Source: Clostridiales bacterium
Lineage (GTDB): Bacteria; Bacillota; Clostridia; Lachnospirales; Lachnospiraceae
Assembly (NCBI GenBank): GCA_012520645.1
Contig: JAAYNV010000028.1
Coordinates: forward strand, 1 to 64,000
Length of the DNA: 64,000 nt
Direction: 5' to 3'
Below, piece after piece: positions 1 to 23,925 of the stretch. The notes under the pieces were generated by a model. It saw only the letters and a list, made by a program, of their open reading frames with translations. It searched no databases and was not told where the DNA came from. Position 1 is the first letter of the stretch. Every line of letters begins with the position of its first letter. Made by a program: the position numbers and the translations under genes.

Positions 1-863
1 CTTCCCGACTTCTGAATGGAAGCCCTTACTTTCTGTCCGATTTCGCTCTGCTTCACTTCCAAAATCTGTCCCTCCGGCACGCCGCTAATCAATGCTCTAT
101 CCACCGTCTGATTCCACATGGTACGGTACTGGTTATCGGTTTTTATCTGCTCCGCTTTTGGGTTGTTCTTGCCAATCTTTTTCGTAGGCAGATACACACC
201 GTTTCTGTCAAAAACCTTGAGCTTTTGCTTGTCATCTTTGACATAAATATTAATAAGGTCAGTGTAGGAGCGTTTCACTTCATCAAGAAAGCTGTCGCTC
301 TTAAATCGGCTGTCTTTTATGGTAAAAAGATTACGCTCATATACCTCGCCCTTGTGAATAATTTTACAGCCTTTCCGAAGCAGTCCGGCTTCATCCAGTA
401 TCTCTTTTTTAGTACGTACATGCTTTCCGTTTTCGTCATAAAACATATTTCTTGTAGCAATCTTCTCCACTGGTTCATCAAGCAGTTTTCGCTCTGAAAA
501 GATAAGATGGATATGATAGTTTGTTTTGCGTTTGTTGTGATGCAAAGCTGAGATACATTCCACGCCATAATTTTGCTTAAAATGCTCCGTAAAAAGCTTC
601 AGCAACTTGTCCGGCTCATAATCTACAAAACTTTCCGGCAGCGCAATGATAAGCTCCCTTGCTTCAATGCAGGTTCCTTTCGTTCCACTTTCCCAAAATT
701 CCTCTTGGTTACACTTAGCAAGTTCCGTCCAAAATTTGCGGTCAGTTGTTTCATAAACTGCATACAAATTTTCCTGCCTTGCTTTACTCGATATATAACT
801 AATTCTGCCCTTTAAATTTGACAGCTTTGACATCTGTATAAATGAATTTCTTACAATAGGCAT
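1..863 (-). CDS. mobA: MobA/MobL-family relaxase, 3' part cut by window edge
   Basis: This open frame is absent from the ORF track because it has no stop in the window. It starts at an ATG (protein MPIVRNSFIQ...) right after an AAAGGGGG ribosome binding site and runs 287 codons off the left edge. Around residues 113-130 it has the relaxase histidine cluster HHNKRKTNYHIHLIF, the metal-binding HxH signature of MobA/MobL enzymes that nick at oriT and pilot single-stranded DNA during conjugative mobilization. The hairpin-rich stretch just upstream would be its oriT. The two ORF-track calls inside it (225-497 and 317-568) are shadows. Family assignment rests on the motif and the context (int, repA); the rest of the protein is not visible. 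A Rep-type HUH protein is the only serious alternative. Confidence 0.85.
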   Translation of the reverse strand, partial: MPIVRNSFIQMSKLSNLKGRISYISSKARQENLYAVYETTDRKFWTELAKCNQEEFWESGTKGTCIEARELIIALPESFVDYEPDKLLKLFTEHFKQNYGVECISALHHNKRKTNYHIHLIFSERKLLDEPVEKIATRNMFYDENGKHVRTKKEILDEAGLLRKGCKIIHKGEVYERNLFTIKDSRFKSDSFLDEVKRSYTDLINIYVKDDKQKLKVFDRNGVYLPTKKIGKNNPKAEQIKTDNQYRTMWNQTVDRALISGVPEGQILEVKQSEIGQKVRASIQKSG

Positions 864-884
864 TACCCCCTTTCTTTTAAAAAT

Positions 885-1207
885 GATAGCGACTTTTGCT
901 ATCGTGAGTGGACACTTAGGTGTCCGTTTACGAACCATCTGCCGTATCCGGCACAACAGCCCTGCAAGGGCGCATTCAGAAATTGCAGAGCAATTTCTTC
1001 ATTACGCGGCTCTCGCTAAGTCCGTCTGCAAGCAGCCGCGTTTAGCTCGATGCAATCGCGAAATACACAGAGTACAAATCTCCGATTTGTGCGATGGGTG
1101 TATTTCGCTCTCAAACGCCGAGGGCTTGTGAGTGTAGTCCGTTTTTGTCATTACACCCTAATCCAGCTTTCTCCTTAACTACCATATACAGGAGCGTGGC
1201 ACGCTCC
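885..1207. other. oriT-like cluster of inverted repeats
   Basis: About 320 bp without a credible gene, lying immediately upstream of the relaxase. It is packed with perfect hairpins: 885-903 (GATAGC/GCTATC), 910-925 (GGACAC/GTGTCC), 941-952 (GCCG/CGGC), 959-971 (GCCCT/AGGGC), 979-997 (GAAATTGC/GCAATTTC), 1005-1040 (CGCGGCT/AGCCGCG), a nested pair 1058-1108 (GCGAAATACAC outer arm, ACAAATC inner arm) and 1191-1207 (GGAGCG/CGCTCC). Inverted repeats next to mobA are typical of origins of transfer. The nic site cannot be read from sequence alone. A structured RNA is the alternative. Confidence 0.55.
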
Positions 1208-1233
1208 CGTCAAACACATCGAATGAAAAAAAT

Positions 1234-1509
1234 TTACCATCGGAAGCTCCGATGCATTCCCACCTTTTCCAGATACTCCTGCCTTGCCTTTTCTCTTTCT
1301 TCCTCAGTTGGAGCAGTCTTATATTTTGTGTATAAATCCCGCTTTACCATAGCTTCCAATTTTTCTTCCAAACCTTTCTTTATCTCTGGTAAAACATCAT
1401 CTATTTCCACCAAGTGATGTTTAAGGAGTGCAATAAATAATTCCTCTGAAATCTGCACATTTTTCAGTCCTATCAATCCATCCTTTCCATCAAGACCGCA
1501 ACAACGCAA
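1234..1509 (-). CDS. Small conserved hypothetical protein of the mobilizable element
   Basis: 91-residue ORF whose track start is a TTG, not ATG. It is acidic and helical, ending in a charged stretch with TAPTEEEREKARQEYLEKVG. It lies between repA and the oriT-like region in the same orientation, a position where mobilizable elements often encode small accessory or relaxosome proteins; that role is only a guess. The start is unclear. The 75 bp upstream contain the palindrome CCTTGCAAGG and a strong GGGAGG site followed by a four-codon ORF (ATGCAGATTATATAA), so translation may begin elsewhere or the 5' end may be disrupted. No function is assigned. Confidence 0.55.
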   Translation of the reverse strand: MRCCGLDGKDGLIGLKNVQISEELFIALLKHHLVEIDDVLPEIKKGLEEKLEAMVKRDLYTKYKTAPTEEEREKARQEYLEKVGMHRSFRW

Positions 1510-1583
1510 TGTCTATAAATTTTGCAACCTTGCAAGGTTCATCACCGCAAATTTTATATAATCTGCATTGTTGCGTTCCTCCC

Positions 1584-2564
1584 TTAAATCTGCTTTATCT
1601 TATCCAGTTCCCAATACCATGAGTTATTGATTTTTCTTGCTCTAATGCCCAGCTCCTTTTTGGCATTTTCCAATGTTCTTTTAGAAATTCCCTGTTCCTC
1701 AGCCATATCAAAAATCTCATTACTCTGTACCGCATTAGCAGTCTCTGCCAGTTCCCGAAGCATCTGCTTTGCCTGCTCCAATTTATTTGCTTTTGGGGCA
1801 ATACCGCCAAGCACTTCATCTGCTGTAATCTCATAATCTCCCAGCCACTTAAAACCACTTTCCATCAGTTCAAATGCCTTGGGATGTCCGAACTGTGCCA
1901 AATTATTTTTTATCTGAACAACTGCTCTGATATTGGGTTCTCCTTCCACTCTGCCGACTAGCAACACGCTCCTTGCTACTGCAAAGAAATCAATGGAACC
2001 CATGCCCCTATAAGCCGCCTTATTGCCGGATGCCTTATTCATATGACCGATAAGAATAATGGCACATTTATATTTCTCTGCCAAAGCTCCTAAACGCTTC
2101 GTCATATCCCTTGCTTCATTTGCTCTGTTCATATCCATGCCACCACCCAAGTAAGCCTGTATCGGGTCTAAAATTAACATCCTCGCTCCGGTCTGTATAA
2201 TAGCTTCTTCCAGCCTTTCATCTGCCATAGAAAGAGACTTGTCGCTTTCATCAATTACCACTATCCGCTCACAATCTGCACCTGCCTTTTCAAGCCTTGG
2301 CTTTACAGTATCTGCAAGCCCGTCCTCGGCAGTCTGATAAATAATGTTCATTGGTTCCGTCAGTTTCATATCATTATCCAGCCCCTCTCCTTTGGATAAC
2401 TTGGCTGCAATATTTAATATCAAGGTTGTCTTTCCGTCTCCCGGATCACCTTGTACGATTGTCAGCTTTCCATAAGGGATGAATGGATACCAAAGCCACT
2501 CAATCTCCTGCGACTGTACTTCTGACATGTTAATCATTTTCAGTTCTGTTCTCTTTTCTTCCAT
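1584..2564 (-). CDS. repA: RepA-like AAA/RecA-superfamily replicative ATPase
   Basis: 326 residues, start supported by CGGAGG five bases before the ATG. The Walker A loop GDPGDGKTT is near residue 40 and the Walker B-like LILDPIQAYLGG near residue 130; IILIGHMNK follows near residue 170, as in hexameric RepA/DnaB-like helicases (AAA_25 type). The C-terminal 80 residues look like a winged-helix segment (QSNEIFDMAEEQGISKRTLENAKKEL). Such proteins occur in plasmids and mobilizable elements, where they support replication after excision or transfer. It follows int after 135 bp that hold a predicted countertranscript RNA, so its expression may be controlled as in plasmid copy control. Confidence 0.8.
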   Translation of the reverse strand: MEEKRTELKMINMSEVQSQEIEWLWYPFIPYGKLTIVQGDPGDGKTTLILNIAAKLSKGEGLDNDMKLTEPMNIIYQTAEDGLADTVKPRLEKAGADCERIVVIDESDKSLSMADERLEEAIIQTGARMLILDPIQAYLGGGMDMNRANEARDMTKRLGALAEKYKCAIILIGHMNKASGNKAAYRGMGSIDFFAVARSVLLVGRVEGEPNIRAVVQIKNNLAQFGHPKAFELMESGFKWLGDYEITADEVLGGIAPKANKLEQAKQMLRELAETANAVQSNEIFDMAEEQGISKRTLENAKKELGIRARKINNSWYWELDKIKQI

Positions 2565-2590
2565 AAAGTCCTCCGTTTCCTAAAATCTCA

Positions 2591-2619
2591 TTGTCACACA
2601 GAAGAACCTCTGTTATACT
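2591..2619 (+). promoter_or_regulatory. Sigma-A promoter reading against the int-repA transcript
   Basis: TTGTCA at 2591-2596 and TATACT at 2614-2619 are separated by exactly 17 bp. The predicted start is near 2626, opposite to int and repA. No ORF follows; a terminator comes about 100 bp later. Confidence 0.6.
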
Positions 2620-2690
2620 TATGCTGTGATTACATATCTTATTGAACATTAGTAGTTCAATAAGCATGGGTAACAGAGGTTTTCCTGTTA
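2605..2690. repeat. Competing inverted repeats in the repA leader
   Basis: AACCTCTGTTA (2605-2615) pairs perfectly with TAACAGAGGTT (2671-2681), enclosing the 9-bp hairpin at 2639-2663. The same TAACAG can instead pair with CTGTTA at 2685-2690, so two structures exclude one another, as in an attenuator. Confidence 0.6.
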
Positions 2691-2728
2691 TCACAAGTCC
2701 TAGCAGTTGCCGCTGTTAGGGCTTTTTT
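2626..2728 (+). ncRNA. Predicted countertranscribed RNA between int and repA
   Basis: Between a 17-bp-spaced promoter and a U-rich terminator lies about 100 nt with no ORF but strong structure. A perfect hairpin TTATTGAAC/GTTCAATAA (2639-2663) is followed by the terminator stem AAGTCCTAGCAG/CTGTTAGGGCTT (2695-2724, paired with two G-U wobbles) and TTTTTTCTTTTT. It is antisense to the 3' end of int and the leader of repA. The layout matches countertranscript RNAs that limit plasmid Rep synthesis, but this one is inferred and untested. Confidence 0.5.
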
Positions 2729-3777
2729 CTTTTTCAAAATCCAGCATATCCGCTACTTTTCTTTGTTGATTCGGATATAAGTGTCCGTAAGTATTTAATG
2801 TGATACGGATATCCTTGTGTCCTACCCTCTCCTTTATCAGAATAGGCTCAATTCCTTTATTGATTAAGTACGCCACATGAGAATGTCTCAAATCGTGAAC
2901 TCTGATTTTCTTTACTCCTGCTTTCTCCATTTGGTGTTTCATTTTGTGTTGCACTGCTTCCTGCACAATGGGGAAGAGTCTTTCATTCTCCGGCATCCCA
3001 TAATGACCATCTATAAAATCCTTAATCTCCTGTTTGAGAAACTCCGGTATTTCTATCAGTCTTACAGATTGCTTCGTCTTAGGTTCCGTAATCACATCCT
3101 GCCTTTCTGTCCGGTAGTAAGTCTTGGTAATGCTGATTTGATTTCTCTCAAAATCGATGTCCTTTGGTGTAAGTGCCAACAACTCTCCAATTCTACATCC
3201 CGTCCAAAAGAGTATTTCAAAGATAAGATAGTATCTGCTTCCCGGCTCCATCGTTTGTATGAACTTTTGGTACTCATCCACTGTCCAGAAGTCCAAACTT
3301 CTGTTATCCGAACTTCCCATACGCTTTACTTTTTTACAAGGATTTGTGTGTAAATCGTAAATTCGTGAAGCATGAGTGAAAAGACTGGTTAGCTGATTTT
3401 GTATCATTCTTAAGTAGGCTTCCGAAAATCCTTTCGTCTGCATTTCATTCTGCCACTGGATAATCTGCCCGGCAGTTATCTCACTCATCATCTGATTACC
3501 GAAGTATGGAATGATGTGTTGCTCCATCATATACCGCTTGTTCTTCATGGTACGTTCCTTCAACTCATTCTGCTTATCTTCAAAATAAACTTCCATAAAT
3601 TCACTTAGCTTCATATCCATACTTCTGCTGTTATTCAATTTCTTCTGTCGTTCATACTCAAGAGCTTCACACTTTTTTCTCAAAACCTCTTTTTCTTCGC
3701 TTTTTCTTTTCGCCCTTGGCATTTGTTTCAAACCATTGGGCTGTCCATTTCTTTGTGTCTTTCTCCTTATACGCCAT
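2700..3777 (-). pseudogene. int: Tyrosine recombinase (integrase), frameshifted near its N-terminus
   Basis: The catalytic part is intact in the frame of track ORF 2700-3731. It has a SAM-like core-binding domain, Arg in FWTGCRIGELL, HDLRHSHVAYL, and the GHKDIRITLNTYGH region with the nucleophilic Tyr. The true start lies upstream in another frame: ATG at 3777 after GGAAGG, encoding MAYKEKDTKKWTAQWFE...KRGFEKKV and then a TGA at 3667-3669. One extra A in the run GAGAAAAAAGTG explains the break; with five As the frame reads RGFEKKCEALEYERQ and continues normally. The track start MKQMPRAKRK is therefore out of frame with the real N-terminus (Arm-type DNA-binding domain). The cause may be loss of function, slippage in the A6 run, or a sequencing error. 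Confidence 0.8.
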
Positions 3778-3793
3778 AATGACCTTCCTTTCC

Positions 3794-3988
3794 TTAATTT
3801 GCTACCAATTCATAGCCAAACATCTTAGTTGCCCAGAACACTCTTGGAATTCGCCCAGGCATTGTCACATAGCCCTGACTATCCAATTCCTTGTTCATCG
3901 ACTTAATAAGCTTGTATGCGTGAGATTTGGAACAATTCAGTTCTTTTGCAACATCTTCCGCACTCATCATATATTGATAATTCGCCAT
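3794..3988 (-). CDS. xis: Excisionase-like small HTH protein
   Basis: 64 residues beginning MANYQYMMSAEDVAKELNC, with GGGAGG upstream of the ATG. The segment SAEDVAKELNCSKSHAYKLIKSMN is a winged-helix/HTH as in excisionase-type proteins, which bind attachment-site arms and steer the integrase towards excision. It sits 16 bp upstream of the integrase start in the same direction, and its promoter region is shared with the divergent repressor gene through the TTCGTAAA boxes. A plain small transcription regulator is possible, but position and size favour excisionase. Confidence 0.7.
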   Translation of the reverse strand: MANYQYMMSAEDVAKELNCSKSHAYKLIKSMNKELDSQGYVTMPGRIPRVFWATKMFGYELVAN

Positions 3989-4052
3989 TTATTCGTCCTC
4001 CCTTCTTCATTTCTAATTTCCTTACATCTCTTGTATTTTGTTCGTGTACGAA

Positions 4053-4206
4053 TTTCGTAAACTTATATTAGCACCATATCTTCCCTTTGTCAACACTTCG
4101 TAAAATTATTTTTACGGTTTTCGTAAATAGTATTTTTTGTAATTTCCTCTTTTATGTTTTTCGTAAATATGCTATTATGGATATTGTAATTATGTTTTTC
4201 GTATTT
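4053..4206. promoter_or_regulatory. Repeated TTCGTAAA operator boxes between xis and repressor
   Basis: The divergent intergenic region holds TTCGTAAA at 4054-4061, 4097-4104, 4120-4127 and 4160-4167, an inverted TTTACG at 4111-4116, and a partial TTCGTATT at 4199-4206. Such clustering points to binding sites for the adjacent XRE repressor, controlling both its own gene and xis-int. Confidence 0.55.
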
Positions 4207-4235
4207 TTTCTATGTATGAATATAGGAGGTTGCTC

Positions 4236-4718
4236 ATGGGCGATGGAAAGAAATTAAAAGAACACATTGATAACAAAGGTACCAATGTGCGTAAGATTGC
4301 TAAAGAAACCGGCATCAGTGCCACTACTCTTTATACTATTATTCAAAAGGATACCAACATCAGATTTGACTTTGCTCTCCGTCTGGCAAATGCCTTGGAG
4401 ATTGATGTAAATGAAATATGCTCCGCAAGTCCTTTCTCCGGAGCCATTACAGAAGAAGAAATCTACCCTACCCTTCCGGATGGTTTGAATGGTGCATTGG
4501 ATTCAAGCAGAATAAAAACATACTTAAAATATTCCCTCTATCCTCTCATGCACCTATTTGGTAAAAACAGTATGCCGGATGTGGACAATCTGCTTACATC
4601 CTTTTATCAGTTGGATGATGAAGCCCGGAAAGAGGTTGTGGAAACGATACAATTTAAGCTGCAGTATCATAAGGATGCGGAAAGAGCAGAACAGGTAAAA
4701 CAGATTAAGGGATGGTAA
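4236..4718 (+). CDS. XRE-family (Cro/CI-like) repressor of the element
   Basis: 160 residues from ATG 4236, chosen over the track start because AGGAGG lies six bases before it. The N-terminus KLKEHIDNKGTNVRKIAKETGISATTLYTIIQKD is a lambda-repressor-type HTH. The C-terminal 90 residues (NLLTSFYQLDDEARKEVVETIQFKLQYH) are helical and probably dimerise. It is the only rightward gene of the element core, divergent from xis-int, so it likely keeps excision genes silent by binding the TTCGTAAA boxes. The signal relieving repression cannot be read from the sequence; no LexA-like peptidase motif is evident. Confidence 0.8.
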   Translation: MGDGKKLKEHIDNKGTNVRKIAKETGISATTLYTIIQKDTNIRFDFALRLANALEIDVNEICSASPFSGAITEEEIYPTLPDGLNGALDSSRIKTYLKYSLYPLMHLFGKNSMPDVDNLLTSFYQLDDEARKEVVETIQFKLQYHKDAERAEQVKQIKGW

Positions 4719-4726
4719 AAAAATAG

Positions 4727-4755
4727 CTCCAGTGAATTTGGGTGATTCACTGGAG
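4727..4755. terminator. Bidirectional terminator between repressor and toxin genes
   Basis: CTCCAGTGAAT/ATTCACTGGAG, an 11-bp perfect stem with a 7-nt loop, T-rich on the right and A-rich on the left. It lies between the convergent repressor and toxin genes. Confidence 0.8.
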
Positions 4756-4782: not shown

Positions 4783-5454
4783 TTATGTATTAGTTTCTTG
4801 GCTAATATGTTCTAGCTCATTAACTTTAGCCTCAAGTTCTTTTATTTTAGTCTCTAATTCTATTAATTGTTGCTCCTGCTCACTATTTTTAGCTTCTAAT
4901 TGTTCTTTATCCGAAATACTTGTTCGCAATTCGTATAAAAAACTCGGAAAATATTTATTCAAAACCAATTCTTCAATGGCTTTATATTCAGATGAATTAA
5001 TATCAAATCTTCCATCCTTCTGATGATATAATATGCGATTTATACTCACAGTACGAATATCATTAAGCTTCATCACCGAATCATGCTGTATGAACGAATA
5101 ATCTGCTTTCTTTAACAAATATAAATCACTTTTACTTGTATTATTATCAACTGGATGATAAACATCAGGATGTTTTTGCGGATCATACGAAAATATAGGT
5201 AGTACATATAAAAGTTTCTTATTGACGCCAATTACTAACCCTCTATGTTCGTATGACATCTCTGGAACAAAGTTTTTTCCAAACTCAAACTGATATATTT
5301 CACCCTTTTTTATTTTACGCGTCTGAAAACTCTTTCTTTTATTATCTGCCCATCTATAATCTGACTTTGAAAATCTATCAATCTCATCATTTCCTAGTGT
5401 TCCATTTAAAATTAAATCATTCGTTTTGGTGATATTTCTTATGTATTCTCTCAC
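4783..5454 (-). CDS. PemK/MazF-fold toxin with C-terminal coiled coil
   Basis: 223 residues from GTG 5454 (GGAGG site just upstream). Residues about 48-150 look like a PemK/MazF/ToxN-type RNase fold: KKGEIYQFEFG, then SYEHRGLVIGV, and later KLNDIRTVSINRIL. The last 45 residues (ELETKIKELEAKVNELEH) form a clear coiled coil not seen in short MazF proteins. No protein antitoxin ORF is adjacent. Instead the gene is preceded by a promoter, a multi-hairpin RNA and a terminator, the layout of type III toxin-antitoxin loci in which RNA neutralises a ToxN endoribonuclease. Family assignment is from motif reading; type II with a distant antitoxin remains possible. Confidence 0.6.
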   Translation of the reverse strand: MREYIRNITKTNDLILNGTLGNDEIDRFSKSDYRWADNKRKSFQTRKIKKGEIYQFEFGKNFVPEMSYEHRGLVIGVNKKLLYVLPIFSYDPQKHPDVYHPVDNNTSKSDLYLLKKADYSFIQHDSVMKLNDIRTVSINRILYHQKDGRFDINSSEYKAIEELVLNKYFPSFLYELRTSISDKEQLEAKNSEQEQQLIELETKIKELEAKVNELEHISQETNT

Positions 5455-5481
5455 TAGAACGCCTCCATTTACTTATGTACG

Positions 5482-5626
5482 AAAAAAGGGTATAGACTTA
5501 GCTATACCCTACTCTGAAATTCAGAGCGACCTCGTCGGTCAAATTAATCCTTTCATGTCATGGCTTTGTCAGCCAAAAATTTAAGCAGTATAACTGCGAA
5601 AATTCATTAATATTATTTGTTTCTCT
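5482..5626 (-). ncRNA. Structured RNA upstream of the PemK-like toxin (candidate RNA antitoxin)
   Basis: About 145 nt, no ORF. In transcription order it holds small hairpins GCAGT/ACTGC, TGGCT/AGCCA, GACC/GGTC and CTCTGA/TCAGAG, then the terminator stem GGGTATAG/CTATACCC followed by six Us (5482-5509). Its promoter is at 5633-5661. The toxin start lies 28 bp past the U tract with no separate promoter, so toxin mRNA would come from readthrough. Long tandem repeats, usual in type III antitoxins, are not obvious. Confidence 0.6.
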
Positions 5627-5632
5627 GCTTAG

Positions 5633-5661
5633 ATTATACCATACTGCACATTGGTTTTCAA
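5633..5661 (-). promoter_or_regulatory. Sigma-A promoter of the structured RNA and toxin
   Basis: TTGAAA (5656-5661), 17-bp spacer, TATAAT (5633-5638) on the minus strand. Near-consensus, with no ORF between it and the hairpin RNA. Confidence 0.75.
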
Positions 5662-5759
5662 TATTTTATCTAACAGAATGTGCTTATTGTATCAAAGATA
5701 CTTTCTGATGTCAATCTCTTTAATAAACATTTTATGTTTCAATTCTACAATGGTGCATA

Positions 5760-6422
5760 TCATAGTATTGCCTCTCCGCATATATCAAAAATTGACATCT
5801 GACCATCTGACTTTTTTTCCGACATATACTTCCATATGGTTTTGTCTAACACGCTTTCACCCACTTCTAACACAGAAGCCGTCTTGCGCAATATTTTGCT
5901 CGCCTCCTTATAATCGGCTGTCAAAACACCTGCTATTTCAAGAAATTGGAACATGTGTCTATCAATAGGAATTGCTTGCTGACCAGATAACAGTTTCATA
6001 TAGTCAATAGTTTTTCTACCCACTCCATTAATTTCTAGTAAACTCTCAGCATTCCTGTCATCCAAAATCCACTCTGCCAAATCGTCCTCTGTATTTATAT
6101 TACAATTATATAAATACCATGCCAAATCACAGATTGTATCTTGCTTTCTTTTATTTTTCCATTGTATTATTTCTTCAATTGGTATTGTTTGAAATAGTAT
6201 TATAAAATCGCAGGTTGTTCTATAATCCGAATATCTGCTTAAAATATTATAAACTCTTGGATACACCACACTTTTATAATTCATTCCTGCTTGTAATACT
6301 GAATCCGTCAAAGTTGCTGCCATATTATAATATGGCGTTCTTTGTGTGATTTCAGCATAATTGTGAGGAATTTTTTCTAAAAGGTCTATAACCTTTTGAA
6401 CTGAGTTATCTATATTATCCAT
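5760..6422 (-). CDS. HhH-GPD DNA-glycosylase-like protein (OGG/EndoIII superfamily)
   Basis: 220 residues, last gene of the four-gene operon, overlapping the QueC-like gene by 8 bp. The helix-hairpin-helix NGVGRKTIDYM (about 132-142) is followed by IPIDRHMFQF (about 151-160). The Lys of GRKT and the Asp of PID match the catalytic Lys and Asp of bifunctional EndoIII/OGG glycosylases, so activity is plausible. The Fe-S cluster cysteines of EndoIII are absent. Such enzymes excise modified bases from DNA. OGG-like genes accompany QueC-like genes in type IV CBASS, which is the closest context I know. Substrate unknown; a nucleic-acid-binding role without catalysis cannot be excluded. Confidence 0.7.
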   Translation of the reverse strand: MDNIDNSVQKVIDLLEKIPHNYAEITQRTPYYNMAATLTDSVLQAGMNYKSVVYPRVYNILSRYSDYRTTCDFIILFQTIPIEEIIQWKNKRKQDTICDLAWYLYNCNINTEDDLAEWILDDRNAESLLEINGVGRKTIDYMKLLSGQQAIPIDRHMFQFLEIAGVLTADYKEASKILRKTASVLEVGESVLDKTIWKYMSEKKSDGQMSIFDICGEAIL

Positions 6423-7059
6423 TAATCTTTTCCTCTAGTATATTATTTATCGCATTTATGCGGTCAACACAATTAGGACACGCTCCACATGGCATATCTG
6501 CATTTACCTGACACGAATATGTCATCTCAATAGGCGCCATTAATTCTAATCCTAATTTTGCCACCTCTGTTTTTGTCATTTCACGAAAAGGCATATTAAT
6601 CCTAATAGAACCATACTCATATAACAAACTTTCTAGCTTTGTAAAAAACTCCATTGAACAATCTATTTCTTTTGCATGATTACTATTAATAAACGCTGTA
6701 TATACATCTTTAATACCCATAGATTGCGCATACGCCGATGCCAATGATATGAACAAAATATTTCTATACGGCAGATACATATCCGCAGCTTCAACATTGT
6801 CTTCCCACAAATTCGCTTCTATTATCATTCTCGAGTTGGATTCCTTGTAAACATCACCAATTTTAATGATACGTACATTATCTACATATTTTGCAGGAAG
6901 TACTTGCAAAAGTGTTTGATATTCCTTGTCCTTACAATGCTGACCGTAATCAATAAATAAAATTACAACATTCTTATTTTCTTTAGCAAGCTTATATGCC
7001 AATACGGTAGAATCCATTCCACCGGAGGCAAGCAAAAGACAATCAAAATTATTCTCCAT
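6415..7059 (-). CDS. QueC-like ATP-dependent 7-deazaguanine enzyme
   Basis: 214 residues, matching QueC length. PP-loop SGGMDS at 12-17, YLPYRNILFISLASAYA at 95-111, and a zinc-type cluster C183-x7-C191-x2-C194-x2-C197. QueC converts 7-carboxy-7-deazaguanine to preQ0 through an amide. QueC relatives in defence loci (QatC; Cap9 of type IV CBASS) act on partner proteins rather than in tRNA queuosine synthesis. No queD, queE or queF lies nearby, and the neighbours are a Gly-rich small protein, a kinase/deoxyribosyltransferase fusion and a DNA glycosylase. A specialised function is therefore more likely than housekeeping queuosine synthesis, so I withhold the symbol queC. It overlaps both neighbours, indicating translational coupling. 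Confidence 0.85.
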   Translation of the reverse strand: MENNFDCLLLASGGMDSTVLAYKLAKENKNVVILFIDYGQHCKDKEYQTLLQVLPAKYVDNVRIIKIGDVYKESNSRMIIEANLWEDNVEAADMYLPYRNILFISLASAYAQSMGIKDVYTAFINSNHAKEIDCSMEFFTKLESLLYEYGSIRINMPFREMTKTEVAKLGLELMAPIEMTYSCQVNADMPCGACPNCVDRINAINNILEEKING

Positions 7060-8392
7060 TTTTCACCATCCTACTAATCGCAGTAAATACTGCATCAATT
7101 ACTTGACTCTTCGTCTTGCAATAATATGTACATGAGTTTTTTAAAAACATATTATCTAGCTTCAGATACGGATCATAAAGTATTATTGGCTTTCCACTTG
7201 CTTGATAATTTCCAATTTCTACCAACGTTCCTTGGTCATTGTAGAGTAATGTTGCTATCATTATTTTGCATTCCGATAACAAGTCCATATCCTTAGCAAA
7301 TATAGCACGCTCTTCACTCATATCCATATCCTTATTCACTTGTCCATTTTCTTGGATTGGTCTCCGAGGTTTAAAATTATGATACAAAAGAGAAGCCTCT
7401 AAAATATCCAATTTCTCTGTATCTACATAATCAAAATCCGGAGCTGCCATATAAATTGGATAGTTTACTCTTACGTTCCATGGAACTCTTATTCCCTCCA
7501 TTTCAACGAAATCATAAATATTCTGAATAATGAGTTCTACATTTTCTTTGAATTTTTCTTGTTGAATTGTTTGTGCATATAAACTTGACATCCACGCTGC
7601 AAATGCCATATTATCTGAAATATTAGTTCCAACCCTTTCAGACATAAATGCTATATCATATACATCTCCTACTCCCACAGAATGAATAGTTTCTCCGATA
7701 TGAGCAGGTGCCTCATAACTTGTTTTTTCCCTAAAATCATAAAGCCATGAACCACCTCTATTTTCCTTTATTAATAACTGAGCGACACTCTTTTTTCCAA
7801 AATATGTTATTAAATTATCATAACTATTTTCTTTAAAAAACTCTTCAAATGAGGTCGATGACGTCGATAAGAATACTGTCTGAATTTTTATTGTATCTAA
7901 ATCTAAAATATCATCACAGTCATAATTCATATCTATATGAATTTTACCTTCATAGTCCGAAAGGTCACTTAAAATTCTTGCATTCCCATATCTTCCCGGA
8001 AAAATAATTATATCTGTCGGTTTGAAATTATCTAATACCTGCATTAACGGCAACATGCTAACATATTCTGCTTGCCTACCTAATATGTTCTCATATAGCT
8101 GATTACCACTCTCATCCGACTGACCAATTAACATTACGTTTGGTGCCTTATCCACCTTACCTAAGCGAAAGACACTATTTGCTCTTAACACATCAACCCC
8201 AAATTTTTCAACATCTTTTACAAGATAATCTGGTGCATAATATGCCAATGCATATTCTATATTCAGTGCATCACAACTTCTTGCAGCATGAAAAATCCCA
8301 CCAAGTCTTGACGTACTATATCCATTCTCTATAATATCAAGATGCTGGTCTACATATACCTCTCCAATTATCAATATTTTTCTATTATGCAT
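7049..8392 (-). CDS. PfkB-family kinase fused to nucleoside 2-deoxyribosyltransferase-like domain
   Basis: 447 residues. The N-terminal 300 are ribokinase/PfkB-like: KILIIGEVYVDQHLD at 4-18, the GG substrate region RLGGIFHAARSC at 29-40, and the second signature HSVGVGDVYDIAF at 237-249 with catalytic-base Asp243. From about 308 the sequence becomes nucleoside 2-deoxyribosyltransferase-like: YPIYMAAPDF, then DQGTLVEIGNYQASGKPII with the expected nucleophilic Glu392. One chain could thus phosphorylate a (deoxy)nucleoside and cleave or exchange its base. It is second in the operon, overlapping its neighbours by 8 and 11 bp. I know of no standard pathway using this fusion beside QueC. Confidence 0.75.
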   Translation of the reverse strand: MHNRKILIIGEVYVDQHLDIIENGYSTSRLGGIFHAARSCDALNIEYALAYYAPDYLVKDVEKFGVDVLRANSVFRLGKVDKAPNVMLIGQSDESGNQLYENILGRQAEYVSMLPLMQVLDNFKPTDIIIFPGRYGNARILSDLSDYEGKIHIDMNYDCDDILDLDTIKIQTVFLSTSSTSFEEFFKENSYDNLITYFGKKSVAQLLIKENRGGSWLYDFREKTSYEAPAHIGETIHSVGVGDVYDIAFMSERVGTNISDNMAFAAWMSSLYAQTIQQEKFKENVELIIQNIYDFVEMEGIRVPWNVRVNYPIYMAAPDFDYVDTEKLDILEASLLYHNFKPRRPIQENGQVNKDMDMSEERAIFAKDMDLLSECKIMIATLLYNDQGTLVEIGNYQASGKPIILYDPYLKLDNMFLKNSCTYYCKTKSQVIDAVFTAISRMVKNGE

Positions 8393-8762
8393 ACAAATTT
8401 ACCACGATAAAAGGAACAGGTGATAGTCCAGACGACTTAATTGCTCCTGAATATCTTTTTCCCTTTTTTATACACAAATTCAAATAGTTATAAGATACTG
8501 GCAGATTTCCAATAACCTCTTGAGTACTGGACAAAACAACAGCCAGTCGCTTGTTAATTAACTGCATTGATAATTCAACTGATTGTCCAGTGGAAGGCAC
8601 ATCTTTATGATTCTGAAAATATTCTGATATAGCCACATCCTCCAATAGAATATTTTCAATAGCTAATGGACATTCATCGCCTCCATTATTTCCTCCATTA
8701 GCAATTGAACCAGCTCCACCACCACGATATGTTCCAAACATTCCATTACCAGAAGACCCCAT
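8385..8762 (-). CDS. Small protein with Gly-rich N-terminal tail; putative partner/substrate of the QueC-like enzyme
   Basis: 125 residues, first gene of the operon, with CGGAGG before the ATG. It begins MGSSGNGMFGTYRGGG; after methionine removal the N-terminus would be glycine, followed by a flexible Gly/Ser/Asn tail to about residue 30. The rest is a compact beta-rich domain (VELSMQLINKRLAVVL, then VIGNLPVSYNYL) faintly resembling HIRAN-type GYLP sequences. No catalytic motif is visible. QatB, partner of the QueC-like QatC, also has a small-residue N-terminus, which suggests this protein could be modified at its N-terminus. That role is inference from context; otherwise it is an unknown small protein. 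Confidence 0.65.
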   Translation of the reverse strand: MGSSGNGMFGTYRGGGAGSIANGGNNGGDECPLAIENILLEDVAISEYFQNHKDVPSTGQSVELSMQLINKRLAVVLSSTQEVIGNLPVSYNYLNLCIKKGKRYSGAIKSSGLSPVPFIVVNLYA

Positions 8763-8953
8763 AATATACCTCCGTAAAATAATATGATGCTTTCATTTTA
8801 CATCGTTTCAACTATTTTGAATAGTCGGAACATTTGGTCTATTCCTTTACAATCATAGTAATCAGGTTACAAATAGATTTGTAAAATTTTTTGGCACCGT
8901 TTTGGCACCGCCAACCCTATTTTTCGCTATTCTTTTCACCTATTTCAAGACGC
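8763..8953. other. Intergenic region between accessory operon and tuf: dyad and direct repeat
   Basis: About 190 bp without a gene. It holds the dyad ACTATTTTGAATAGT (8811-8825), a possible operator for the accessory operon, and two copies of TTGGCACCG (8891-8899 and 8902-8910). The latter are close to where foreign, AT-rich sequence meets the tuf terminator and are candidate attachment-site arms. No convincing promoter with both boxes could be picked for the accessory operon. Confidence 0.35.
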
Positions 8954-23696: not shown

Positions 23697-23925
23697 CCTT
23701 ATAGATTTTGTCCGGCATACGCCGGTATTGCCGATCAGGAGTTTTATGAATTCTTCAAAATAAGAACCAAAAACCTCCCCGTCTTCAGGCATTGCCAAAA
23801 GACAGGGAGGTAAAAATCATTGCAAAAACTCTTTTCTCCTCGGCAGGCGTTTTCTTCTTACGCATCAGTTCCCAATAGGAAAACCTCTGCACCTGCTGTC
23901 TTCGGCATGGTTCTAAAACCTTGAA
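23697..23925 (-). ncRNA. L10 leader of rplJ-rplL
   Basis: 230-nt leader upstream of rplJ with the typical layout. A 5' structured region (GGTGCAGAGG... through GAAAACGCCTGCCGAGGAG) is followed by a strong terminator-type stem CCTCCCTGTC/GACGGGGAGG plus TTTTTG (23769-23810) and a last hairpin near the ribosome binding site. L10 binding is the known regulator in Firmicutes. Assignment is by position and architecture, not covariance search. Confidence 0.75.

What the first reader, a model, noticed from the sequence alone, without database searches (positions are those of the whole stretch)
4783..5661. PemK/MazF-fold coiled-coil toxin behind a multi-hairpin RNA with its own promoter and terminator
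The order promoter (TTGAAA-17-TATAAT), 145-nt hairpin RNA, terminator, ribosome binding site, toxin without its own promoter is that of type III toxin-antitoxin loci. Yet the RNA has four different short hairpins rather than obvious tandem repeats, and the protein carries a C-terminal coiled coil and MazF-like motifs. It could be a new type III family or an RNA-regulated MazF-like toxin.
Basis: partly seen in the sequence, partly recalled or inferred. Interest (0 to 1): 0.72.

Follow-up and report, generated by a model that had tools for sequence, protein, structure and literature searches.

The report
MazF-like toxin with RNA antitoxin
A gut bacterium carries a gene for a probable RNA-cutting toxin that in every relative is preceded by the same previously uncatalogued small RNA, which is often kept when the toxin is lost; this looks like a new kind of RNA-held toxin-antitoxin pair, although toxicity and neutralisation are still untested.

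Summary
On the minus strand lie a promoter (5661-5633), a ~144-nt RNA ending in a terminator (5510-5482), a ribosome binding site and a 223-aa ORF (5454-4783) whose core is predicted to have the MazF fold.

All 47 homologous loci with upstream DNA, found by protein alone (identity down to 46%), carry the same RNA. It matches no Rfam family; 17 of 24 base pairs show compensatory changes. It does contain a repeat: two hairpins with GACRA loops, 28-34 nt apart, resembling the phage P22 boxB pentaloop.

Between unrelated contexts, homology covers just promoter-RNA-ORF (~0.95 kb). No neighbouring protein is conserved and the RNA encodes no conserved peptide. In 11 of 47 loci the ORF is broken or truncated while the RNA is kept; nine further loci keep promoter and RNA with the ORF gone or reduced to remnants. 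No family member lacks the RNA.

Best reading: an RNA-antitoxin (type III-like) module with a MazF-fold toxin, outside ToxIN, CptIN, TenpIN and AbiF. Toxicity, binding and RNA processing are untested; an autoregulatory leader is the main rival.

The parts
5633..5661 (-). promoter TTGAAA-17-TATAAT with extended -10 (TGG before TATAAT)
   Evidence: 11 of 12 matches; a TATAAT-like -10 is found upstream of the RNA in most relatives and RNA-only loci
5482..5626 (-). putative antitoxin RNA, ~144 nt (start inferred from the -10, end from the terminator T run)
   Evidence: model R1 matches 5478-5603(-) at 101 bits; upstream of all 47 relatives; no Rfam match
5585..5597 (-). hairpin 1 (GCAGTTATACTGC), followed by a T run; sequence and stem vary among relatives
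5562..5574 (-). repeat hairpin A, GGCT-GACAA-AGCC
   Evidence: helix 1 (4 of 5 pairs with changes on both sides)
5528..5540 (-). repeat hairpin B, GACC-GACGA-GGTC
   Evidence: helix 2 (3 of 4 pairs with changes on both sides, 100% of cells paired)
5512..5526 (-). hairpin 3, CTCTGA...TCAGAG
   Evidence: helix 3 (5 of 5 pairs with changes on both sides)
5482..5510 (-). intrinsic terminator AGGGTATAG-CTAAGT-CTATACCCT plus T run
   Evidence: helix 4
5462..5466 (-). ribosome binding site GGAGG
   Evidence: read directly
4783..5454 (-). toxin ORF, 223 aa, GTG start (TTG in most relatives)
   Evidence: dN/dS about 0.03-0.18 in pairs with usable dS
4972..5313 (-). MazF-like domain (about residues 48-161), preceded by a two-helix N-terminal extension
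4789..4947 (-). C-terminal coiled coil (about residues 170-222)
4727..4755 (-). terminator-like hairpin after the toxin (also reads on the + strand)

Best explanation
This is a two-part RNA-antitoxin / protein-toxin module of type III-like logic. One promoter makes a short RNA most of which ends at the terminator; occasional read-through makes the toxin mRNA, translated from a weak start codon, so RNA stays in excess (arrangement shown; ratio inferred). The RNA folds into hairpins, two of which present the same GACRA pentaloop 28-34 nt apart (shown by covariation). The protein is a MazF-fold endoribonuclease, probably dimeric through its MazF domain and coiled coil (fold predicted; activity and dimerisation inferred). 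The two hairpins bind the toxin, perhaps one per subunit, and block it (inferred). If transcription stops or the module is lost, the RNA decays and the toxin cuts cellular RNA (inferred from known type III systems).
For: RNA present upstream of 47 of 47 homologues with upstream DNA, collected by protein alone. Structure: 98% of cells paired, 17 of 24 pairs with two-sided changes against 3-7 in slid controls. RNA divergence 0.01-0.18 where toxin dS is 0.3 or more. In pairs from unrelated contexts the shared DNA is only about -240 to +700, the promoter-RNA-ORF unit. No conserved neighbour protein and no conserved peptide in the RNA. Toxin broken or truncated in 11 of 47 loci with RNA at 73-137 bits; promoter and RNA without toxin in L059, L064, L066, L069, L070, L072/L121, L117, L120, L122, some with start or start-plus-end remnants of the toxin gene; RNA-only copies keep 19-24 of 24 pairs, L069 24 of 24 with 4 double changes. 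Family sample of 299 genomes: 14 strong RNA loci, of which 7 have an intact and 1 a broken toxin and 6 have none; no family member without RNA. MazF fold. Working precedent with the same layout: C. difficile AbiF/RCd22 (PMC12373285).
Against: No experiment shows toxicity, RNA-protein binding or RNA processing. No pseudoknot, which all solved type III antitoxins have, was found. Only two repeats, and L026 keeps a toxin (with shortened coil) behind a single repeat. Retained RNA after toxin loss could partly be recent loss: L064, L072 and L122 show some broken pairs. The usual catalytic Thr of MazF appears replaced by Phe/Cys next to an invariant Ser89 (inferred from the alignment), so catalysis is not assured.
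Confidence: 0.72

Rival explanations
1. The RNA is a cis-acting leader: the MazF-like protein, or a ligand, binds the GACRA hairpins and sets read-through of the terminator or translation, so the element is an autoregulatory attenuator and not an antitoxin.
For: Hairpins followed by a terminator directly before the RBS fit an attenuator; the loops have the P22 boxB class of sequence (GACAA with flipped C, PMC12550061), a known site for an RNA-binding regulator of read-through; hairpin 1 plus T run resembles a second terminator.
Against: A purely cis-acting leader has no use without its gene, yet promoter and folded RNA persist without the gene in nine separate loci, some with compensatory changes. 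No mutually exclusive antiterminator pairing was seen among covarying columns.
Confidence: 0.17
2. The RNA is an independent small RNA with targets elsewhere in the cell, and the MazF-like ORF is a travelling companion regulated by read-through.
For: RNA-only loci are nearly as frequent as RNA plus intact toxin in the family sample (6 against 7).
Against: RNA-only loci keep toxin remnants in L059, L064, L066 and L122; RNA and ORF share homology boundaries; distribution is patchy, about 5% of genomes, as for a mobile module.
Confidence: 0.06
3. An ordinary type II MazEF/PemIK locus whose protein antitoxin is hidden or lies elsewhere.
For: MazF fold; distant relative L057 passes the Pfam PemK cut-off.
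Against: No shared neighbour ORF of 70 aa or more in 48 loci; no conserved ORF with RBS in the RNA; shared DNA ends just after the toxin stop.
Confidence: 0.03

Closest known systems
AbiF/RCd22 of Clostridioides difficile (PMC12373285; RNA family RF03085)
   Same: SigA promoter, ~130-nt RNA with two repeated stem-loop motifs, terminator, RBS and toxin without its own promoter; RNA neutralises the toxin by direct binding there
   Different: Toxin there is an Abi_2/HEPN-type protein; here a MazF-fold protein with coiled coil. RNA here does not match RF03085 or any Rfam family
Type III toxin-antitoxin systems ToxIN, CptIN, TenpIN, AbiQ (PMC5086642)
   Same: Repeated antitoxin RNA, terminator, then toxin; repeat length of 31-34 nt is near the 34-36 nt of ToxI; the MazF and ToxN folds are related (own knowledge)
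   Different: Protein is nearer to MazF than to ToxN in fold search and no ToxN-type family was hit; no pseudoknot found; two imperfect repeats, the second merged with extra hairpins
MazF/PemK toxins of type II systems (e.g. B. subtilis MazF 4mdx, S. aureus MazF 4mzp)
   Same: Predicted core fold (TM 0.74 by target length, E about 1e-5)
   Different: No MazE/PemI-type antitoxin gene; N-terminal extension and coiled coil; RNA upstream instead
Phage P22 boxB RNA hairpin (PMC12550061)
   Same: U-GACAA-A / C-GACRA-G pentaloop, compatible with a GNRA fold with the third base flipped out; observed loop variants GACGA, GACAA, GAUGA, GGCGA all fit G-N-Y-R-A
   Different: No N-like protein; loop resemblance only, no evidence of antitermination

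Membership tests
Type III toxin-antitoxin (general layout) | tandem-repeat RNA upstream of the toxin, separated by an intrinsic terminator, one promoter | tested here: met
   Two hairpin repeats 28-34 nt apart, terminator and conserved promoter; imperfect repeats
Type III toxin-antitoxin (general layout) | no protein antitoxin next to the toxin | tested here: met
Type III toxin-antitoxin (known families) | toxin homologous to ToxN, AbiQ, CptN or TenpN | tested here: not met
   No such family in Pfam, NCBIfam or PADLOC scans; the 50 best PDB fold matches are all MazF
Type III toxin-antitoxin (known families) | each repeat folds as a pseudoknot | tested here: inconclusive
   Covariation shows hairpins only, no supported pseudoknot
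Type III toxin-antitoxin (general) | RNA binds and neutralises the toxin protein | not testable with these tools
   needs bench work
Type III toxin-antitoxin (general) | toxin processes the antitoxin RNA | not testable with these tools
   needs RNA-seq or Northern blot
AbiF/RCd22 | abiF RNA motif RF03085 and Abi_2 protein | tested here: not met
Type II MazEF/PemIK | MazF/PemK-fold toxin | tested here: met
   predicted fold; sequence only weakly
Type II MazEF/PemIK | adjacent protein antitoxin | tested here: not met
   (ORFs of 70 aa or more)
Known Rfam RNA | match to any of 4227 families | tested here: not met
   best sub-threshold match is a plant-type miRNA model at E 2.3

The most novel reading that the evidence does not exclude
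A MazF-fold RNA-cutting toxin is held in check by an RNA instead of a protein, through a pair of P22-boxB-like GNRA pentaloop hairpins; and bacteria that lose the toxin keep the RNA as a stand-alone antidote against incoming copies.
Probability: 0.45. Interest if true: 0.82.

Novelty: new variant of a known kind. Interest (0 to 1): 0.7.

Why it matters
MazF toxins are a textbook case of protein-held (type II) toxins. An RNA holding a MazF-fold toxin would show that RNA antitoxins arose more than once on different toxin scaffolds, give a new structured RNA family with a defined loop motif, and offer natural orphan RNAs for testing whether antitoxins persist as anti-addiction genes. It is found in common gut Lachnospiraceae and directly testable with two plasmids.

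Tried and rejected
Viral contigs: no homologue; a 16-mer pattern gave 39 contigs, but model R1 found no credible copy (best 25 bits). INPHARED phages and PLSDB plasmids: no match for protein or RNA. Full-length fold with the coiled coil was poor (pLDDT 60), so only the core was used. Sequence search of PDB found nothing relevant. Pseudoknot search by column covariation: nothing beyond the hairpins. Peptide encoded in the RNA: rejected. Conserved neighbour gene: none. L057, a 27% relative with a clear PemK match, has no such RNA; I count it as outside the family. Weak RNA model hits below about 50 bits in other genomes are treated as chance. A boxA-like reading of TTCTTTCNCACTT before hairpin 1 was dropped because that stretch changes as a hairpin in other members. 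Literature searches found no description of this pair; the library is incomplete and subscription papers are missing.

Full report
Observation. The minus-strand features reported are present where stated: a near-consensus promoter (5661-5633), an RNA of about 144 nt that ends in an intrinsic terminator (5510-5482), a strong RBS and a GTG-started ORF of 223 codons (5454-4783). The upstream stretch folds better than 199 of 200 shuffles (z -3.2). The region matches no Rfam family even at a permissive threshold.

Protein. Pfam sees PemK_toxin only weakly (E 0.0085). A distant relative, L057 (27% identity), passes the PemK cut-off. Without the coiled coil, AlphaFold gives pLDDT 82 and pTM 0.73, and the 50 best PDB matches are all MazF-family toxins (best E 9e-6, TM 0.74 by target length); the best viral match is a PemK-like protein that also covers the N-terminal extension (168 columns). 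The core is therefore very probably MazF-fold, with a helical N-terminal extension and a C-terminal coiled coil. Invariant residues include SYxH and the stretch KLNDxR. The MazF-type Thr seems replaced by Phe/Cys next to an invariant Ser89; this is read from the alignment, so catalysis is inferred, not shown. In pairs with usable dS, dN/dS is about 0.03-0.18.

RNA. Protein-only searching gave 48 loci, mostly Lachnospiraceae and some Oscillospiraceae. Every one of the 47 with upstream DNA has the RNA in the same orientation, even at 46-51% protein identity; in L030 and L044 it stands further upstream behind extra DNA, and L026 keeps only the second half. Covariation is strong: 17 of 24 pairs have two-sided changes, 98% of cells pair, and slid controls fall to 31-46%. 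Hairpins 2 and 3 of the RNA are two copies of one motif, a short stem capped by GACRA, usually 31-34 nt apart (28 in one locus). In the distant members L037, L038, L040 and L045 the linker, third hairpin and terminator have changed, but the two GAYRA hairpins and their spacing remain. Loop variants (GACGA, GACAA, GAUGA, GGCGA) fit a GNRA-like pentaloop with the third base flipped out, as in phage P22 boxB, whose loop is GACAA (PMC12550061). This is a resemblance, not proof of a shared function. No pseudoknot was supported.

Unit. When homologous loci from unrelated contexts are compared, DNA similarity covers about -240 to +700 relative to the start codon and then stops. The promoter, RNA and ORF thus move as one unit. 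Neighbouring proteins are not shared, and no conserved peptide with an RBS exists in the RNA. The start codon is TTG in about three quarters of relatives, consistent with low toxin output.

Asymmetry. Eleven of 47 ORFs are frameshifted, stopped or truncated while their RNA scores 73-137 bits. A covariance search of 299 family genomes found 14 strong RNA loci: 7 with intact toxin, 1 broken, 6 with no toxin. A second sample added L117, L120, L121 and L122 without toxin. Several carry scars: L059 and L066 join the first codons of the toxin to what look like its last ones, L064 and L122 keep only the start. The orphan RNAs keep their -10 elements and 19-24 of 24 pairs, some with compensatory changes (L069: 24 of 24 with 4 double changes). 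The reverse, an intact family member without the RNA, was never seen. This is the pattern expected if the protein is harmful and the RNA protects from it.

Mechanism. The layout equals that of AbiF/RCd22, where an RNA with two stem-loop repeats neutralises a different toxin by direct binding (PMC12373285), and of type III systems in general (PMC5086642). I propose RNA in excess through termination, toxin through read-through, and blocking of a toxin dimer by the two loop hairpins. Layout, structure and selection are shown; toxicity, binding, stoichiometry and RNA cleavage are inferred.

Classification. It works like a type III system, but it is not a member of ToxIN, CptIN, TenpIN (protein test not met, pseudoknot not found) or AbiF (RNA and protein tests not met), and it is not MazEF (no protein antitoxin). 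I rate it a new variant of a known kind. The main rival is a cis-acting leader; persistence of the RNA without its gene argues against it but does not exclude it.

Noticed in passing
window 5745-8887: Cassette absent at the matching place in close relative L001: a glycine-rich 125-aa ORF, a 447-aa ORF with a C-terminal nucleoside deoxyribosyltransferase domain, a QueC-like protein and an HhH-glycosylase-like protein. It recalls nucleobase-modifying defence operons (own knowledge, not tested).
   Followed up: partly
window 315-4537: Second insert relative to L001: tyrosine integrase, small excisionase-like protein, DnaB/primase-like helicase and HTH regulator, an apparent integrative element next to the toxin module.
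   Followed up: partly
window 5503-5494 and the same place in relatives: The terminator loop (UUAGCG in most relatives) is conserved even in orphan RNAs whose stem has changed (L069); terminator loops normally drift. Unexplained.
   Followed up: no
window 5585-5575: Hairpin 1 is followed by a T run and looks like a second, promoter-proximal terminator in most relatives.
   Followed up: no
L057:1492-2280(-): Distant PemK-like toxin (27% identity) with N-terminal extension and coiled coil but without the RNA, beside phage-like genes.
   Followed up: partly
L066:2023-2370 and L034:2002-2165: Two tandem Clostridiales-1 RNAs near an orphan antitoxin RNA, and a FuFi-1 RNA near a toxin locus.
   Followed up: no
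window 23759-23923(-): Ribosomal protein L10 leader, ordinary.
   Followed up: no
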